Below, in pieces: positions 1 to 41,033 of a stretch of DNA of 64,000 bases; positions within the stretch are counted from its first letter, which is position 1, and every line of letters starts with the position of its first letter. The notes under the pieces were generated by a model that was given only the letters and a program-made list of their open reading frames with translations, made no database searches and was not told the DNA's origin. The stretch spans positions 868,001 to 932,000 of the forward strand of contig NZ_CP014161.1 of assembly GCF_001543175.1 (NCBI RefSeq), in the 5' to 3' direction. The position numbers and the translations under genes were made by a program. This DNA comes from Aerococcus urinae (GTDB taxonomy: Bacteria; Bacillota; Bacilli; Lactobacillales; Aerococcaceae).

Positions 1-934
1 TTTATTAACTTGTACATTAGCCGCTTGTTCCAACCAAGGCAATGAAAGTAGTAAGGATAAAGTTGATGTGGGGATCATCCAATACATGGAACATGATTCC
101 TTACAAAAAGCTAAGGAAGGTTTCCAAGATAGGCTCAAAGAAGCTGGTTATGAAGAAGGTAAGAATTTAGAGATTGAATTCCATAACTCCCAAGGTGACC
201 AGTCAAACCTGCAAAGTATTACCCAACAATTAAAAGGGAAGAAGGATTTAATTTTAAGTATTGCTACGCCAGCTGCCCAAGCCATGTTGAATACAGACAA
301 GAAGACCCCGCAATTATTTACAGCAGTTACTGATCCTGTCGGCGCTAAATTAGTTGAAAGTAAGGAAAAACCAGGTAAAAATATGACCGGCACGAGTAAC
401 TTGACCCCTGTTGGAGATGTGGTTAATTTATTATTAAAGGCTGATCCAAGTATAAAAACAATTGGTATCTTGTATAATTCAAGTGAAATGAACGCGCAAG
501 TTCAATATGAACAAGCCAAGGAATATATTGAGTCCAAGGGCTTAAAAGTCGAAAGTATGACAGTGACGTCAACTAACGATGTGCAACAAGCGACTAAAAT
601 CTTAGCTGAAAAAGTTGATGGCATCTACCTTCCAACAGATAACACCATTGCTAATACCATTCAAACCATTGGAAAGGTCCTAATGGAAACTAAGACGCCG
701 TCAGTAGCCGCTTTCGATGCCGCTATCGAAGGGTCTCTATGTGCCTATGGGGTAGACTACTATAAATTAGGTCAACAAACTGGAAATATGGCTGTTGATA
801 TCCTTAAAGGAGATAAAAAACCTGCGGACATTCCAGTAGAAATGTCTAAGGACATGGTCATTAAGGTAAACGATGAAATGGCTGCTGCCTTGGGAATGGA
901 CAGTGAGGAATTGAAGGCGCGTTTAAAAGGATAG
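1..934 (+). CDS. ABC transporter substrate-binding lipoprotein, TrpX-like (5' end outside window)
   Basis: Binding protein of the ABC_sub_bind (TrpX) family, expected to sit on the outer face of the membrane and deliver a small substrate, probably an aromatic amino acid, to a permease. The gene is cut by the window edge: the frame is open from base 2, and the first codons encode a lipobox (LAAC, Cys at 26-28), so only the start of the signal peptide is missing. By eye it differs from the complete copy at 38276-39244 at about 19 of 288 residues, while many synonymous sites differ, so both copies look selected for function. No permease or ATPase gene follows; the next gene is an unrelated PTS protein. 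Substrate is not provable from sequence. Confidence 0.9.
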   Translation, partial: LLTCTLAACSNQGNESSKDKVDVGIIQYMEHDSLQKAKEGFQDRLKEAGYEEGKNLEIEFHNSQGDQSNLQSITQQLKGKKDLILSIATPAAQAMLNTDKKTPQLFTAVTDPVGAKLVESKEKPGKNMTGTSNLTPVGDVVNLLLKADPSIKTIGILYNSSEMNAQVQYEQAKEYIESKGLKVESMTVTSTNDVQQATKILAEKVDGIYLPTDNTIANTIQTIGKVLMETKTPSVAAFDAAIEGSLCAYGVDYYKLGQQTGNMAVDILKGDKKPADIPVEMSKDMVIKVNDEMAAALGMDSEELKARLKG

Positions 935-2362: not shown

Positions 2363-2490
2363 AAAGCCCTAGCAATAAAAGACAATCGTTTTAAGAAATG
2401 CCTTTATTGAGTCGCTTTTAAAAAATAGTTGAAAAGGCTTGTTTAATTTTTATTTATGACATATGATGAGTAAGTAAAATACTATTAATT

Positions 2491-2594
2491 AGGGGAGCCA
2501 CGGCTGAGAGGATTTATATCGACCCTTTAACCTGATCAAGGTAATGCTTGCGTAGGTAGTCTTTTTTTGTGCTCTCCTTTATCTTTTAGGAGGG
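2491..2594 (+). promoter_or_regulatory. TPP (thiamine pyrophosphate) riboswitch, likely translational
   Basis: The conserved THI-box signatures are present in order: GGGGAGCC, GCTGAGAG (2503-2510), ACCCTTTAACCTGATC and GGTAATGCTTGCGTAGG. Downstream, CTCTCCT (2572-2578) can pair with the thiW Shine-Dalgarno AGGAGGG (2588-2594; one wobble, nine-base loop). The same region, GCTCTCC at 2571-2577, can instead pair with GGGGAGC (2492-2498) of the aptamer 5' strand. The simple model is that TPP-bound aptamer releases this arm to hide the ribosome site, so thiW is off when TPP is plentiful. Confidence 0.9.
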
Positions 2595-2600
2595 AATTTT

Positions 2601-3140
2601 ATGAATAGGAAATCAAGTCCATTGATTTTAGTAACGGTAGCAATGTTTGTGGCCATTGGGGTGGTTATTTCTCCGATCTTTCGAGTAGAGGGCTTTGCCC
2701 CTACCGCCCACTTTGTTAATGTGGTTTGTTCGGTTTTATTGGGCCCTTGGTATAGTTTGTTAAATGCAATTCTGACTGCAATTATCCGGATGAGTCTTTT
2801 TTCGGTACCTCCGTTAGCGCTCACTGGCCAAGTTTTTGGTGCTGTGCTTTCGGGAATACTATATCGTCTCTTTAATGGCTCTATCCTTGCTTGTGTGCTT
2901 GGTGAAATTATCGGCACAGGGATAATCGGGGCCATTGCTTCCTATCCAGTAATGGCACTTCTATTGGGAAAAACAGGGATTACTTGGCTCTTCTATGTGC
3001 CTAGTTTTCTAGTTGCCACAATTATTGGTGGTGTCTTAGCTTATTTCTTCTTAGTCACCTTACGTCAAACCGGTTTGCTTTATAAAATGCAAAAACGCCT
3101 AGGGATCAATGTTTATGATTCTTCTAAGAAAAAGGCTTAA
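2601..3140 (+). CDS. thiW: Thiamine-related ECF transporter S component ThiW
   Basis: A 179-residue membrane protein with about five to six hydrophobic segments. The N-terminal pattern with VGVVISP-like and EGFAPTAHFVNVV motifs is typical of ThiW, the substrate-binding S component of an energy-coupling-factor transporter for a thiamine precursor, probably the thiazole moiety. The upstream TPP riboswitch independently supports a thiamine role. It has a strong AGGAGG six bases before ATG. The gene is alone: no thiM/thiE salvage genes and no ECF A/T modules lie nearby, so it presumably shares the general ECF module encoded elsewhere. Confidence 0.88.
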   Translation: MNRKSSPLILVTVAMFVAIGVVISPIFRVEGFAPTAHFVNVVCSVLLGPWYSLLNAILTAIIRMSLFSVPPLALTGQVFGAVLSGILYRLFNGSILACVLGEIIGTGIIGAIASYPVMALLLGKTGITWLFYVPSFLVATIIGGVLAYFFLVTLRQTGLLYKMQKRLGINVYDSSKKKA

Positions 3141-37114: not shown

Positions 37115-37468
37115 ATGTCTACAAATCGTCGCGTAGAGCGAGTTAGCCAAGAAATCTTACGCGAAGTTAACTCGATTCTGCGTAAAGAAGTTAAAGATCC
37201 TCGTGTCAAAAATATTACCATTACTGATGTTGATTTAACTGGTGATTTACAAAACGCTACTATCTATTATTCCACCTTATCCGATTCACAAAGTGAGCAT
37301 GAAAAAGTACAAAAGGGACTTGATAAGGTCAGCGGCTTAGTACGTTCGTTGTTAGGTCAGCGTTTACGTATTTATAAAACTCCAGAAGTGGTTTTTAAGC
37401 GTGATGAATCCATTGAATATGGTCAACGTATTGACCAGTTATTGGCTCAGTTAAATAAAGAAGATTGA
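37115..37468 (+). CDS. rbfA: Ribosome-binding factor A
   Basis: A 117-residue KH-fold protein acting in 16S rRNA 5' end maturation. RVERVSQEILREVNSILRKEVKDPRV at the N-terminus and PEVVFKRDESIEYGQRIDQLL near the C-terminus are diagnostic. ACAAGGAGAG precedes ATG. It is the last gene of the operon here; in many relatives truB and ribF follow directly, but here they are about 7 kb away. Confidence 0.96.
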   Translation: MSTNRRVERVSQEILREVNSILRKEVKDPRVKNITITDVDLTGDLQNATIYYSTLSDSQSEHEKVQKGLDKVSGLVRSLLGQRLRIYKTPEVVFKRDESIEYGQRIDQLLAQLNKED

Positions 37469-37600
37469 TATTCTTCGAATAGAGTCTGATAAGCGCGTCA
37501 AAAGGCAATACCGCTGGAAGAAAAGGGTGGCAAAATTTCCAAAGAGAAGTTTCCATCACTTTCTAAAGTGAATGTTTGCTCAGTGCTTGAAATATATTTT

Positions 37601-37640
37601 GAAAAGAGGCTGTATATCTGTACGGCCTCTTTTCTTATTT
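37601..37640 (+). terminator. Rho-independent terminator after rbfA
   Basis: GAAAAGAGGC (37601-37610) pairs with GCCTCTTTTC (37625-37634), then TTATTT. The 132 bases before it show no gene; the stretch 37641-37857 is AT-rich and shows nothing recognisable. Confidence 0.88.
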
Positions 37641-37857
37641 CAAACTGAAACTTAGAAATAAAATTTTAATAAAAGACTAGCAAGGTGGATTAAAAAATCA
37701 AAGTTTATATTGAATTAATGAACACAAATGATCAAAATATCAGATCAACTTTGTAATAAAAGCTTCAAGATTACGCTTAAATAAGTCTTTTTGCCTTATT
37801 ATTTATTAAATGAGAATTTAAATTTATAAAACATAAACTTATATTTTAAATTAAGTG

Positions 37858-37886
37858 TTGACTTTATCTTAAAAATTGTTTAACAT
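37858..37886 (+). promoter_or_regulatory. Promoter of the leader-controlled trpXYZ-like operon
   Basis: TTGACT (37858-37863) and TAACAT (37881-37886) with an ideal 17-base spacer. Predicted start near 37893 leaves a short 5' end before the leader-peptide ribosome site AAAGGAG at 37904-37910. Confidence 0.75.
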
Positions 37887-37919
37887 TACTTCAACAGCTT
37901 AAGAAAGGAGCATGTGATC

Positions 37920-38000
37920 ATGTTAGTTAAATACCTTATCAATCAGAGCGCATGCTCTACTTATCAAAATGTACGATTTTACTTTAGCTATTTTAGATAG
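37920..38000 (+). CDS. Aromatic-rich leader peptide (26 codons)
   Basis: ATG at 37920 is preceded by a full Shine-Dalgarno AAAGGAG with nine-base spacing, in a region with no longer gene. The 26-residue product has four Tyr (5, 15, 21, 24) and three Phe (20, 22, 25), five aromatic residues within positions 20-25, no Trp, and ends in TAG at 37998-38000. The codons sit just before a chain of alternative hairpins and a terminator that precede an ABC transporter of the aromatic amino acid type. This is the layout of a classical attenuation leader peptide sensing charged Tyr/Phe tRNA. Seen directly: frame, ribosome site, codon content. Inferred: sensing role. Confidence 0.75.
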   Translation: MLVKYLINQSACSTYQNVRFYFSYFR

Positions 38001-38001
38001 C

Positions 38002-38182
38002 GTTTGTACTATGAAACATCATAGATACAAACGTCAAACTCAAGTTTGTATCTATGATGGCTAAGGATCTTAAGCATGTCTAGCCCTCATAGAATGGATA
38101 AATTCTAAATGGGCTATACCACTATTAATATATGCTATTAATAAGCCCATTTAGTTTTGTCCAAACTAGGTGGGCTTTTTTT
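38002..38182 (+). promoter_or_regulatory. Seven-segment cascading attenuator
   Basis: Segments: 1 = 38002-38013; 2 = 38017-38032; 3 = 38044-38063; 4 = 38081-38092; 5 = 38107-38116; 6 = 38144-38157; 7 = 38163-38176. Pairings checked by hand: 1:2 twelve pairs with one bulge; 2:3 sixteen perfect pairs; 3:4 eleven pairs and one mismatch; 4:5 six pairs plus inner AGAAT/ATTCT; 5:6 nine pairs plus inner eight; 6:7 fourteen pairs with two wobbles and a T run (terminator). Neighbouring pairings exclude each other, so folding alternates between 1:2, 3:4, 5:6 (open) and 2:3, 4:5, 6:7 (terminated). Confidence 0.78.
38144..38182 (+). terminator. Conditional intrinsic terminator of the leader
   Basis: AGCCCATTTAGTTT (38144-38157) pairs with AAACTAGGTGGGCT (38163-38176) around a five-base loop, followed by a T run at 38177-38182. 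The left arm can instead pair with AAATGGGCT (38107-38115), which would prevent termination. Confidence 0.9.
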
Positions 38183-38275
38183 ATACCTTTTGGGGGAGTG
38201 GTAGTATGGAAGGTCCGTTTAACAGTCAAAAACAATAGAAAATCAACTGTGTTTATTTAGTGTTATGGAGGAAAA

Positions 38276-39244
38276 ATGATGAAAAAATATTTACGTTATA
38301 TTACAGCAGGTTTATTAACATGTGTATTAGCCGCTTGTTCCAATCAAGGTAATGAAAGCAGTACTAAAAAGGTCGATGTGGGGATTATCCAATATATGGA
38401 ACACGATTCCCTACAAAGAGCTAAGGAAGGCTTCCAAGATAGTCTGAAAGAAGCTGGCTATGAAGAAGGAAAGAATTTAGCGATTGAATTCCATAATTCT
38501 CAAGGCGACCAATCCAACTTGCAAAGCATTACCCAACAATTAAAGGGTAAAAAGGACCTGATTTTAAGTATAGCTACTCCTGCTGCCCAAGCTATGCTAA
38601 ACACTGACAAGGAGACCCCGCAATTATTTACGGCTGTTACTGATCCGGTCGGCGCTAAATTAGTCGAGAGTATGGAAAAACCGGGTAAAAATATGACCGG
38701 TACCAGTGATATGGCCCCGGTTGCTGATGTCGTTGATTTATTATTAAAGGCTGATCCATCCATTAAAACCATTGGGATTTTATATAATTCAAGTGAAGTA
38801 AACTCAGAAGTCCAATATGAACAAGCTAAAGAATATATCGAATCCAAGGGCTTAAAAGTCGAAAGTATGACAGTGACATCAACTAATGACGTGCAACAAG
38901 CAACTAAAATCTTAGCAGAAAAAGTAGATGGTATCTACCTACCAACCGATAATACCATTGCTAATACCATTCAAACTATTGGTAAGGTCCTAATGGAGAC
39001 CAAGACGCCATCAGTTGCTGCTTTCGATGCTGCTATCGAAGGTTCCCTATGTGCCTATGGGGTAGATTACTATAAATTAGGACAACAAACAGGGAACATG
39101 GCAGTAGAAATTCTTAAGGACAATAAAAAACCAGAAGACATCCCAGTGGAAATGTCTAAGGACCTAGTCGTTAAAGTAAATGATGAAATGGCTGCTGCCT
39201 TAGGCATGGACAGTGAAGAATTGAAGGCGCGTTTGAAAGGCTAG
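38276..39244 (+). CDS. trpX: ABC transporter substrate-binding lipoprotein, TrpX-like
   Basis: A 322-residue ABC_sub_bind protein with a complete signal peptide and lipobox LAAC (Cys21), so it is predicted to be anchored to the outer membrane face. The two-lobed periplasmic-binding fold runs through the rest. It heads the operon with permease and ATPase genes, as in TrpXYZ systems that import tryptophan or related compounds; the upstream leader peptide has Tyr and Phe but no Trp codons, so tyrosine/phenylalanine is a better guess for this system. A near-duplicate lies at 1-934. GGAGG serves either of two adjacent ATGs, 38276 or 38279. Confidence 0.9.
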   Translation: MMKKYLRYITAGLLTCVLAACSNQGNESSTKKVDVGIIQYMEHDSLQRAKEGFQDSLKEAGYEEGKNLAIEFHNSQGDQSNLQSITQQLKGKKDLILSIATPAAQAMLNTDKETPQLFTAVTDPVGAKLVESMEKPGKNMTGTSDMAPVADVVDLLLKADPSIKTIGILYNSSEVNSEVQYEQAKEYIESKGLKVESMTVTSTNDVQQATKILAEKVDGIYLPTDNTIANTIQTIGKVLMETKTPSVAAFDAAIEGSLCAYGVDYYKLGQQTGNMAVEILKDNKKPEDIPVEMSKDLVVKVNDEMAAALGMDSEELKARLKG

Positions 39245-39325: not shown

Positions 39326-40210
39326 ATGGATTTAATGATATCTAGTGTTTCACAGGGAATGATGTGGTCAATTTTGGCCATTGGAGTATATATTACTTTT
39401 AGAATCTTAGGCTTAGCCGACTTATCCGCAGAGGGAAGTTTCCCTCTGGGAGCGGCAGTCTGTGCTAAATTATTAGTTAGCCAAGTTCATCCCTTTTTAG
39501 CGGTTTTAGCGGCTCTTCTAGCTGGCGCTCTGGCTGGTTTCTTAACTGGTTTTATGACGACAAAGATGAAAATTCCGGCTCTCTTAGCAGGGATCTTGAC
39601 CATGACTGGTCTTTATTCCATCAACTTAAGAGTCATGGGTCAAGCCAATACTCCCTTACTAGGAGAAAAAACCTTGTTAACTTTCTTGGAAAACATGGGT
39701 CTATCAACAACTTGGTCACCCTTCTTACTGGGCTTATTAACTGTCGTTCTTATTGTTTTAATCCTTGTGATTTTTATGGGAACGGAGTACGGATTGAGTT
39801 TGATAGCAACTGGAGATAATGCTTTGATGGCTGAAGCTAACGGGATTCGAACAGACCACGTTCAATTAGTTGGCTATATGATTTCAAATGCCCTCATCGC
39901 TCTATCGGGAGCTTTAATTGCTCAATATAACGGCTACGGGGATTTATCGATGGGGACAGGAACGATCGTTATTGGACTAGCTGCTATTGTGATCGGCGAA
40001 GTTTTATTAAAACAAGTCAAGCTTCCTGTACGTTTACTATCCATTGTTTTAGGAGCGATTATCTATCGGGTGATTATCGACTTGATCATGAAATATATTC
40101 CAATTTTGCCAAGTGACATTAAGATCCTATCAGCCATCGTCTTAGCGATTATCCTCTGGGGACCACAAGTAGAATGGAAGACTAAAAAAAGCCCGAGCTT
40201 AAATCATTAA
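39326..40210 (+). CDS. trpY: ABC transporter permease, TrpY-like
   Basis: A 294-residue inner-membrane permease of the branched-chain/TrpY type with about eight to nine hydrophobic segments. GLADLSAEGSFPLGAAVCA near residues 30-48 and GMMW..LAIGVYITFRIL at the N-terminus are typical, and the EYGLSLIATGDNALMAEANGI region (about 152-172) is the ATPase-coupling loop. AGAAGAGG lies about eleven bases before ATG. Works with the binding protein upstream and the ATPase downstream. Confidence 0.9.
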   Translation: MDLMISSVSQGMMWSILAIGVYITFRILGLADLSAEGSFPLGAAVCAKLLVSQVHPFLAVLAALLAGALAGFLTGFMTTKMKIPALLAGILTMTGLYSINLRVMGQANTPLLGEKTLLTFLENMGLSTTWSPFLLGLLTVVLIVLILVIFMGTEYGLSLIATGDNALMAEANGIRTDHVQLVGYMISNALIALSGALIAQYNGYGDLSMGTGTIVIGLAAIVIGEVLLKQVKLPVRLLSIVLGAIIYRVIIDLIMKYIPILPSDIKILSAIVLAIILWGPQVEWKTKKSPSLNH

Positions 40211-40226: not shown

Positions 40227-41033
40227 ATGAATGAATTAGTTCAATTAAAGAATTTAAATAAGGTATTTCAAACTCAATCTAGTAAAGCTCATCAAGTCAT
40301 TAAAGATTTAAATCTTTCGATTAAGGATAATGATTTTATCAGTGTTATTGGCAGTAATGGTGCCGGAAAATCAACCATGATGAATCTTATTGCCGGAACG
40401 ATTCCCTTAAGCTCAGGGCAGATTTATTTAGCCGATCGTGAAATTTCTACTTTACCAGCTTATAAACGGGCAAAAATGATTAGTCGGGTCTTCCAAGACC
40501 CACAAATGGGAACAGCCAAGTCTTTAAGCGTAGAAGAAAACTTAGCCATTGCTTATAAGCGAGGACACAAGCGCAGCTTCCAAACATCTATTACAAAAGA
40601 TATGCGTGAAGAATTCCGTTCTCGTCTAAGCACCCTAGGTATGGGCTTAGAGAACCGCATGCAAGAACGGGTAAGCTCCTTATCAGGGGGTCAACGCCAA
40701 GTCTTAACTTTACTTATGGCTGTTTTACAAACTCCAAAACTTTTACTTCTTGACGAGCATACGGCTGCCTTAGATCCTCGCACGAGTGCAATGGTAATGT
40801 CTTTAACCCAAGACTTGGTCAGCCAATATCAACTGACTACTCTGATGATTACTCATGATATGAATGATGCTCTATCATATGGCAATCGTTTAATCATGCT
40901 TCATGACGGTCAAGTAGTCGTTGATATCTCTGGAGAAGAGAAAGAAAATTGTAGCATTGACGACTTACTACAACTTTTCCATCATAATGTAGGTGAAAGC
41001 CTTAATAATGATGAGTTATTATTAGCTAACTAA
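40227..41033 (+). CDS. trpZ: ABC transporter ATP-binding protein, TrpZ-like
   Basis: A 268-residue ABC ATPase. Walker A GSNGAGKST near residues 43-51, signature LSGGQRQ near 152-158, Walker B LLLLDEHTAALD near 171-182 and the switch His in ITHDM near 210 are intact. It powers the TrpXYZ-type importer and is 16 bases from the permease gene. GGAAAGGAAA precedes ATG. No obvious terminator follows; the aldehyde dehydrogenase gene has a separate ribosome site and a cre-like element in front. Confidence 0.93.
   Translation: MNELVQLKNLNKVFQTQSSKAHQVIKDLNLSIKDNDFISVIGSNGAGKSTMMNLIAGTIPLSSGQIYLADREISTLPAYKRAKMISRVFQDPQMGTAKSLSVEENLAIAYKRGHKRSFQTSITKDMREEFRSRLSTLGMGLENRMQERVSSLSGGQRQVLTLLMAVLQTPKLLLLDEHTAALDPRTSAMVMSLTQDLVSQYQLTTLMITHDMNDALSYGNRLIMLHDGQVVVDISGEEKENCSIDDLLQLFHHNVGESLNNDELLLAN

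What the first reader, a model, noticed from the sequence alone, without database searches (positions are those of the whole stretch)
38002..38182. Domino attenuator: seven RNA segments with mutually exclusive neighbour pairings
Each segment can pair with the previous or the next one: 1:2, 2:3 (16 perfect pairs), 3:4, 4:5, 5:6 and 6:7, the last being an intrinsic terminator. Classical amino acid attenuators use four segments. Here a state set at the leader peptide would be passed through three switches to a terminator about 150 bases downstream. An odd number of segments means masking segment 1 selects the terminated fold (2:3, 4:5, 6:7), while leaving it free selects the open fold (1:2, 3:4, 5:6).
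Basis: seen in the sequence. Interest (0 to 1): 0.88.

Follow-up and report, generated by a model that had tools for sequence, protein, structure and literature searches.

The report
Aromatic amino acid relay RNA switch
This is a leader RNA that probably senses a shortage of phenylalanine and tyrosine through a stalled ribosome and passes that signal down a chain of competing hairpins to a transcription stop signal; related RNAs occur in many lactic acid bacteria and their kin and had been catalogued as a small RNA.

Summary
Seven segments with mutually exclusive neighbour pairings lie at 38000-38177 behind a 26-codon leader ORF (MLVKYLINQSACSTYQNVRFYFSYFR*), upstream of a TrpX-like ABC transporter operon. 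It belongs to a large family: a covariance model built here hits 253 of 395 sampled genomes of the order. In fetched loci, 133 of 145 matches precede shikimate-pathway genes or aromatic-type transporters. 5:6 complementarity is locus-specific; compensatory changes are clear for 0:3b, 1:2 and 4:5, thin for 2:3 and 3:4. Segment 1 alone therefore does not decide. In computed folds the first switch opens only when segment 0 is covered and segment 1 is free, as with a ribosome stalled on the Phe/Tyr codons. Rfam holds this RNA as RF02863 'Enterococcus sRNA 2410'; the window scores 60.5 bits, cut-off 61. His-operon leaders already have six such segments, so this is a longer variant of a known kind. 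For this window's own copy, folding does not show switching at the terminator, and some energies run against the model. Nothing here is experimental.

The parts
37858..37886 (+). promoter-like site (TTGACT - 17 - TAACAT)
   Evidence: 9 of 12 matches; 5 such sites found in 37500-38500 against 5.1 expected in shuffles, so weak
37904..37910 (+). Shine-Dalgarno AAAGGAG of the leader ORF
   Evidence: read from sequence; in loci found through segment 3, 58 of 60 have an in-frame ATG plus SD, 0 of 60 in either other frame
37920..38000 (+). leader ORF, 26 aa MLVKYLINQSACSTYQNVRFYFSYFR*, run of Phe/Tyr codons before the stop
   Evidence: family consensus QLNN[YF][YF]FSYFR
37982..37990 (+). segment 0 (CUUUAGCUA), inside Tyr-Phe-Ser-Tyr codons; pairs with 38058-38066
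   Evidence: 9 pairs in the window; 98.7% of cells paired in A1, with C-G in 52 and U-A in 4 loci at the third base of the preceding Tyr/Phe codon
38000..38014 (+). segment 1, directly after (and including the last base of) the leader stop codon; pairs with 2
38017..38033 (+). segment 2; pairs with 1 or 3
38044..38066 (+). segment 3 and its tail; pairs with 2 (38044-38059), 4 (38052-38063) or, by its tail, with 0 (38058-38066)
   Evidence: pattern of its 20-nt core in 108 of 395 genomes of the order
38081..38095 (+). segment 4; pairs with 3 or 5
38102..38116 (+). segment 5; pairs with 4 or 6
38143..38159 (+). segment 6, 5' arm of the terminator; pairs with 5 or 7
38162..38182 (+). segment 7, 3' arm of the intrinsic terminator, and U run
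   Evidence: stem 38143-38177, 15 pairs, then U run
38276..39244 (+). substrate-binding lipoprotein, TrpX-like
   Evidence: NF041285 ABC_SBP_TrpX 319.5 bits, below its cut-off of 390
39326..40210 (+). ABC permease
   Evidence: weak matches to other ABC permeases, all below cut-off
40227..41033 (+). ABC ATPase
   Evidence: matches to ABC ATPase models, those shown all below cut-off

Best explanation
It is a ribosome-mediated transcription attenuator that senses Phe/Tyr-tRNA charging and controls aromatic amino acid transport (here) or biosynthesis (in many relatives). A leader ORF ends in Phe/Tyr codons. (a) No ribosome: segment 0 pairs with the tail of 3 around hairpin 1:2, 4 is left to 5, and terminator 6:7 forms: off. 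(b) Ribosome that reaches the stop codon: it covers 0 and 1, 2:3 forms, then 4:5 and 6:7: off. (c) Ribosome stalled on the aromatic codons: it covers 0 but leaves 1 free, so 1:2, 3:4 and 5:6 form and the terminator is pre-empted: on. In some relatives 4:5 carries its own U run and looks like a first terminator, so one relay would open two terminators. Shown here by computation: the ORF signature, the pairings and their conservation, gene context, and the mask dependence of the first switches in most of the 54 relatives tested. Inferred: that stalling by low Phe/Tyr charging is the signal, and that the last steps discriminate in the cell.
For: Leader ORF: 58 of 60 loci found through segment 3 have in-frame ATG plus SD, 0 of 60 in each other frame; Phe or Tyr at each of -3, -2, -1, +1, +2 around a Ser codon in 55 to 60 of 61 distinct leader strings, one of which (L170) is a chance match. 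Context: of 145 element matches, 57 precede a TrpX-like SBP, 53 aroE, 10 DAHP synthase, 6 aroB, 3 aroC, 3 an NSS symporter, 1 aroK; 12 unassigned (L011 genes named). Pairing, 54 loci: own-locus 5:6 -14.8 against -10.35 kcal/mol cross-locus (p<=1e-4), 4:5 and 6:7 likewise, no excess for 5:7, 4:6, 3:6. Covariation: for 0:3b, 1:2 and 4:5 together 15 pairs changed on both sides against 7.5 +/- 1.5 shuffled and 6-9 when slid. Coordinated exchange at alignment columns 38, 55, 97 and 134 (segments 1, 2, 3 and 4) in L011 and L104. L208, found by the model: leader AAUAACCAU and tail AUGGUUAUU both replaced, pairing kept (by eye). Ribosome masks: stalled minus stop gives 3:4 up in 45, down in 1 of 54 and 5:6 up in 34, down in 5 of 54; 3:4 forms in 52 of 54 with 0 masked and 1 free. 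Kinetic model, 17 loci: 3:4 at least 0.5 before segment 6 in 11 of 17 when stalled, 0 of 17 without ribosome, 0 of 17 at stop. Two terminated products would fit the two transcripts of E. faecium sRNA_2410 in Northern blots (PMC5593968 section 6), if that is the cause.
Against: Full-length equilibrium folds show no difference in 6:7 between stalled and stop. Once segment 5 is present, 4:5 wins at equilibrium in 51 of 54 loci even with segment 0 masked, so the relay needs kinetic persistence or the arrival of segment 6. In the window's copy 3:4 forms (0.97) in the stalled kinetic run and is then displaced by 4:5, and forced folds favour the wrong outcome when stalled and at stop. L001 (window) and L003 (copy 3) terminate in all states in the kinetic model; L011 and L015 at stop, L010, L013, L024, L040 and L052 do not follow the model cleanly. 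Covariation at 2:3 and 3:4 is thin: 2 both-sided pairs each, reached by 22 and 33 of 500 shuffles. In the duplex test 4:7 also shows a small excess (-9.13 against -8.42, p 0.0012) and 3:4 only a small one. Segment 3 variants L165/L166 and L171-L174 are not compensated at segment 4 by my reading. The 87 loci behind these tests were selected for segment 3 and leader similarity and contain none of 21 Streptococcus loci checked. No expression data for this organism.
Confidence: 0.8

Rival explanations
1. The leader peptide is an arrest or hold peptide: the nascent chain QLNN..YFSYFR slows the ribosome at or near the stop (perhaps sensing free aromatic amino acid), and codon starvation is secondary.
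For: Amino-acid-level conservation beyond control codons: Leu at -6 in 51 of 61 distinct leader strings, spelled CTG 28, TTG 12, TTA 6, CTA 5; Asn at -5 in 54; Arg at +3 in 59 (AGA 56, AGG 3).
Against: Several invariant codons (TTT AGC TAY) are also explained by segment 0 pairing. The window's copy and the Streptococcus leaders seen lack QLNN. No arrest assay.
Confidence: 0.15
2. It is a trans-acting small RNA, as Rfam names it (Enterococcus sRNA 2410).
For: RF02863 matches at or above cut-off in 12 of 24 loci scanned (4 of 4, 8 of 20); E. faecium sRNA_2410 was seen by RNA-seq and Northern (PMC5593968, passages and section 6).
Against: In 133 of 145 matches it lies before an aromatic amino acid type gene in the same direction; it begins inside an ORF that looks translated; conserved alternative pairings end in a terminator. 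A terminated leader would look like an sRNA.
Confidence: 0.04
3. The family works as proposed but this window's copy is weak or locked, for instance drifted after duplication (three copies in the genome).
For: Window copy: 5:6 forms in all states at equilibrium, 6:7 forms in all states in the kinetic model, forced folds favour the wrong outcome when stalled and at stop; copies at G000:C1:867582 (95%) and 945489 (80% over part) exist.
Against: First step behaves as predicted in the window (3:4 11.0 pairs with 0 masked, 0.1 to 1.8 otherwise); copies 1 and 2 are 95% identical over 308 nt and copy 2 passes the Rfam cut-off.
Confidence: 0.25
4. A T-box or another tRNA- or protein-binding antiterminator.
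For: A T-box controls the related trpX gene in S. suis strain 10 (PMC9382623, passages).
Against: No T-box match in the window; the only Rfam match at cut-off is a TPP riboswitch at 2481-2575, and no T-box among weak matches of 37840-38280. A binding protein was not tested.
Confidence: 0.01

Closest known systems
Rfam RF02863 sRNA_2410 (Enterococcus sRNA 2410)
   Same: Same RNA: copy 2 of this genome scores 63.4 and matching relatives 61.8 to 90 bits, cut-off 61; its consensus already draws stems that correspond to 0:3b, 1:2 and 4:5.
   Different: Named a small RNA; the model as shown has no leader ORF, no alternative pairings and ends before terminator 6:7. 12 of 24 loci scanned, and the window's own copy (60.5), fall below its cut-off.
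his operon attenuator of enteric bacteria (segments A-F)
   Same: Leader peptide with control codons, relay of more than one switch (AB/CD/EF against BC/DE), stronger attenuation without the translating ribosome (PMC10989985, passages).
   Different: Six segments; there the ribosome covers A to give readthrough. Here eight segments, and the on state needs 0 covered and 1 free. Different amino acid and phylum.
His-leader attenuators of Firmicutes
   Same: Leader-peptide attenuators in Firmicutes, predicted by comparative genomics (PMC2965389 and PMC9413887, passages).
   Different: His codons; no Phe/Tyr leader and no relay of this length in the passages seen.
uORFC-13-1 motif (Acholeplasma aroF)
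   Same: Predicted Phe uORF before an aromatic pathway gene with a terminator (PMC8632094, passages).
   Different: Reported only in Acholeplasma and environmental sequences; I did not compare the sequences.

Membership tests
Ribosome-mediated transcription attenuator | translated leader ORF with codons of the regulated amino acid | tested here: met
   SD+ATG in frame 58 of 60, other frames 0 of 60; Phe/Tyr run. Translation itself is inferred from this signature
Ribosome-mediated transcription attenuator | mutually exclusive terminator and antiterminator | tested here: met
Ribosome-mediated transcription attenuator | downstream genes of the same amino acid | tested here: met
   (133 of 145), for named genes; the substrate of the TrpX-like transporter is not proven
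Ribosome-mediated transcription attenuator | ribosome position changes the terminator outcome | tested here: inconclusive
   yes for 3:4 and 5:6 in most of 54 relatives and in part of 17 kinetic runs; not for full-length 6:7 at equilibrium nor for the window's copy
Ribosome-mediated transcription attenuator | induction on amino acid limitation | not testable with these tools
   needs experiment
Rfam RF02863 sRNA_2410 | covariance model score at or above the gathering cut-off of 61 bits | tested here: inconclusive
   window 60.5, its 95% copy 63.4, 12 of 24 scanned loci at 61.8 to 90, the other 12 below
Rfam RF02863 sRNA_2410 | acts as a trans-acting sRNA | not testable with these tools
   the passages seen report expression only
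T-box leader | match to RF00230 | tested here: not met
Arrest-peptide leader | amino-acid-level conservation of the nascent chain | tested here: inconclusive
   QLN, S and R conserved in most distinct leaders but QLNN absent in the window and in Streptococcus leaders seen
Arrest-peptide leader | ribosome arrest by the peptide | not testable with these tools
   needs toeprinting

The most novel reading that the evidence does not exclude
An order-wide Phe/Tyr control element in lactic acid bacteria and kin that works as an AND gate (segment 0 covered and segment 1 free) feeding a relay that was lengthened by tandem duplication of its terminator (4 resembles 6 and 5 resembles 7, which makes 5:6 automatically; a one-terminator form is seen in L208), with a leader peptide whose own sequence helps to time the ribosome at the stop codon.
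Probability: 0.25. Interest if true: 0.82.

Novelty: new variant of a known kind. Interest (0 to 1): 0.68.

Why it matters
It would give a function to an Rfam family named only as a small RNA and supply a candidate Phe/Tyr sensor for an order that includes food bacteria, commensals and pathogens. It would also be a natural attenuator with more switches than the his leader, in which one base change is matched across four segments, so it is a clean system to ask how long a co-transcriptional RNA relay can be and how such relays grow.

Tried and rejected
T-box: no match. Trans sRNA: see rivals. Mobile or repeat element as the reason for three copies: copies 1 and 2 each precede an SBP paralogue and copy 3 precedes a full SBP-permease-ATPase set, so gene-plus-leader duplication is simpler. 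'Phage' origin: of 5 phage-collection hits I opened two; these unannotated wastewater contigs carry rpoB and ABC transporter genes (L010) or aroE to aroC (L011), so they look like bacterial DNA. Equilibrium folding of the whole leader as the test of the switch: no discrimination in 6:7, kept as evidence against. Tandem duplication of the terminator: 4~6 and 5~7 similarity is higher within loci, but pairing of 5 with both 4 and 6 would force that too. Spread over the phylum: 4 of 398 sampled genomes, 3 of them in the own order and one of these the window's own genome. Weak model hits in the order (E 1e-5 to 1e-8) were not inspected one by one. The automatic 4:5 finder gave nothing in 7 of 87 loci and visibly wrong hairpins in several more; one search used a motif anchor instead. 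One of the 61 leader strings (L170) proved a chance match.

Full report
WHAT IS THERE. The finding ends 93 nt before an ABC transporter operon (SBP 38276-39244, permease, ATPase). The SBP matches the TrpX model at 319.5 bits, below that model's cut-off of 390, so it is TrpX-like with an unproven substrate. A 26-codon ORF at 37920-38000 with an AAAGGAG at 37904-37910 ends in FYFSYFR*. In the window alone the long stems (16 and 15 bp) exceed what 300 shuffles give (longest 14), although the number of stems of 8 bp or more does not (7 against mean 4.5, maximum 10).

RELATIVES. The window genome has three copies: this one, a 95% copy just before the window start upstream of an SBP paralogue, and a diverged one (80% over 133 nt) upstream of another SBP-permease-ATPase set. 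A pattern for segment 3 alone, which does not look at the leader, hit 108 of 395 genomes of the order in 31 of 80 genera; the reversed control hit one genome by my reading of the table, and one of the hits (G268, L170) is a chance match. A covariance model from 59 loci hit 253 of 395 genomes (61 of 80 genera) at E <= 1e-4 per genome, and 4 of 398 genomes across the phylum, one of them the window's own; the weaker hits were not inspected.

WHICH LOCI WERE TESTED. The tests below use 87 distinct loci with segment 3 (4 mismatches or fewer, no gaps) and the leader motif (2 or fewer) among those fetched by then, reduced to 54 (80% identity) or 59 (88%). This selection favours similarity and leaves Streptococcus out (0 of 21 checked); one Streptococcus-like locus (L207) was read by eye and shows the same order of segments.

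GENE CONTEXT. Of 145 matches in fetched loci, the first recognisable gene among the next ORFs is a TrpX-like SBP in 57, aroE in 53, DAHP synthase in 10, aroB in 6, aroC in 3, an NSS symporter in 3, aroK in 1. The 12 unassigned are, by my reading, 8 antisense matches of this near-palindromic element, 2 at contig ends (L035, L041), one before a BrnQ-like carrier (L044) and one before another SBP (L136). The class labels rest on BLAST to representatives; the L011 genes (aroE, DAHP synthase, aroB, aroC) were named by curated models. Jeotgalicoccus loci L048 and L075 precede what reads like pheA (by eye).

THE LEADER LOOKS TRANSLATED. In loci found through segment 3, 58 of 60 have an in-frame ATG preceded by a Shine-Dalgarno sequence; in each of the two other frames 0 of 60 do. 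The consensus is QLNN[YF][YF]FSYFR, then a stop at once in 41 of 61 leader strings, three codons later in 19, the last one being the chance match L170. Leu at -6 is spelled four ways (CTG 28, TTG 12, TTA 6, CTA 5), so the amino acid, not the RNA, is kept there; codon-based attenuation does not explain this and it is left open.

AN EIGHTH SEGMENT. The codons TTT AGC TAY are kept at the nucleotide level. They form CUUUAGCUA (37982-37990), which pairs with UGGCUARRG, the tail of segment 3 (38058-38066). In the 59-sequence alignment 98.7% of cells pair, and the third base of the preceding Tyr/Phe codon changes with its partner, C-G in 52 and U-A in 4, 2 unpaired, 1 gap. A distant locus found by the model (L208, before an NSS symporter) has a different leader (AAUAACCAU) and a matching tail (AUGGUUAUU). 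Rfam's RF02863 consensus already contains an outer stem in this place.

COVARIATION AND LOCUS-SPECIFIC PAIRING. For 0:3b, 1:2 and 4:5 together, 15 pairs show changes on both sides (shuffled 7.5 +/- 1.5; slid 6 to 9). 2:3 and 3:4 are paired in 96.0 and 98.5% of cells but with only 2 both-sided pairs each, a number reached by 22 and 33 of 500 shuffles; variation in segment 2 is mostly A to G opposite U, which suits both partners. In L011 and L104, which precede different genes, a G to A in segment 3 goes with C to U in segment 4, C to U in segment 2 and G to A in segment 1 (columns 97, 134, 55, 38). Among further segment 3 variants fetched afterwards, L167 (close to L104) and, by a shifted bulge, L168 are compensated at segment 4, while L165/L166 and the change next to the bulge in L171-L174 are not (by eye). 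Segment 5 pairs better with its own segment 6 than with that of other loci (-14.8 against -10.35 kcal/mol, 54 loci, p <= 1e-4); 5:7, 4:6 and 3:6 show no excess, while 4:7 shows a small one (-9.13 against -8.42, p 0.0012) and 3:4 a small one (-14.83 against -14.51, p 0.0013). Shared ancestry is not removed by this permutation; the controls argue that it is not the whole cause.

HOW IT MOST LIKELY WORKS. With ribosome footprints imposed on 54 loci and RNA up to mid-terminator, mean pairs are: no ribosome 0:3b 8.3, 1:2 12.2, 3:4 1.6, 4:5 7.1, 5:6 6.5; stalled on the Tyr codon after AGC 1:2 9.5, 3:4 8.0, 4:5 3.3, 5:6 11.4; at stop 2:3 14.2, 3:4 1.7, 4:5 7.0, 5:6 6.8. Masking the two segments separately shows an AND gate: with RNA to the end of segment 4, 3:4 forms in 52 of 54 loci when 0 is covered and 1 is free, in 7 with nothing covered, 0 with 1 covered, 13 with both covered. 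A ribosome stalled on the Phe/Tyr codons is what covers 0 and leaves 1 free. Against this: once segment 5 is out, 4:5 wins at equilibrium in 51 of 54 even with 0 covered, and full-length 6:7 does not differ between states, so the outcome would have to be kinetic. A coarse kinetic model on 17 loci gives 3:4 of at least 0.5 before segment 6 in 11 of 17 when stalled and 0 of 17 in each other state; mean final 6:7 is 0.33 stalled, 0.83 without ribosome, 0.71 at stop (from the printed values). L022, L032 and L136 switch cleanly; L001 (this window) and L003 (copy 3) terminate in all states; L010, L011, L013, L015, L024, L040 and L052 do not follow the model cleanly.

THE WINDOW'S OWN COPY. The first step behaves as predicted (3:4 11.0 pairs with 0 covered, 0.1 to 1.8 otherwise). 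In the stalled kinetic run 3:4 reaches 0.97 and is then displaced by 4:5. Forced full folds give: no ribosome, open -75.8 and terminated -75.2; stalled, relay-open -59.6 and terminated -62.6; at stop, 2:3 with 5:6 -64.1 and terminated -62.6. The last two run against the model.

DOUBLE TERMINATORS AND GROWTH OF THE RELAY. In 23 of 54 loci segment 5 is followed directly by a U run, so there the relay would open two terminators at once. Segments 4 and 6, and 5 and 7, are more alike within loci than between them; L043 and L044 have nearly identical tandem hairpins and L208 has only one by eye. Tandem duplication of a terminator would create 5:6 at once. This is a reading, since double pairing of 5 also forces the similarity.

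COMPARISON. The his attenuators use AB/CD/EF against BC/DE (PMC10989985, passages), so a relay longer than four segments is known. Firmicute His leaders are described (PMC2965389, PMC9413887, passages). The RNA itself is Rfam RF02863, named after E. faecium sRNA_2410, 195 nt, seen by RNA-seq and as two transcripts on Northern blots (PMC5593968, passages and section 6); the strings leader and attenuat do not occur in that main text. Ten searches of open-licence PMC papers gave, in the listings and passages that I saw, no description of this element as an attenuator; subscription journals are not covered, including the 2003 paper of Panina and colleagues on aromatic amino acid regulation in Gram-positive bacteria, which I know only from recall and from a reference list.

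VERDICT.

Noticed in passing
window 2481-2575: TPP riboswitch (55.8 bits, cut-off 54.3), upstream of a membrane protein ORF at 2601-3140 that reads like a thiamine transport component.
   Followed up: no
window 68-934 and G000:C1:867582-867890 (L002, L135): A second copy of the leader (95%) precedes an SBP paralogue; no permease or ATPase of this type is among the next ORFs listed to window 8000 (by eye). The SBP and its leader seem to have been duplicated as a unit.
   Followed up: partly
L010, L011 (OR846821.1, OR846630.1): Records filed as Listeria and Enterococcus phages from wastewater carry rpoB and ABC transporter genes, or aroE to aroC, and look like bacterial chromosome fragments.
   Followed up: no
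L135-L204 leaders: The leader peptide keeps Gln-Leu-Asn upstream of the aromatic run with synonymous Leu codons, a peptide-level constraint that codon-based attenuation does not need.
   Followed up: partly
L144-L154 and others: In 19 of 61 distinct leader strings the stop comes three codons later, inside segment 1, giving ends such as SYFRSCL*; the ribosome at stop would then lie deeper in segment 1.
   Followed up: no
window 38018-38185: Weak match to RF04312 'trpB ncRNA motif' (38.2 bits, cut-off 59, E 0.0007), possibly a related leader family.
   Followed up: no
L061, L063 (Streptococcus suis strains): FY-type leaders precede a TrpX-like SBP in these strains, while a published S. suis strain has a Trp T-box at trpX; paralogues or strains may differ in sensor.
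   Followed up: no
window 37601-37634: Strong intrinsic-terminator-like hairpin (15 pairs) after the ORF at 37115-37468 that reads like rbfA, separating the upstream genes from the leader.
   Followed up: no
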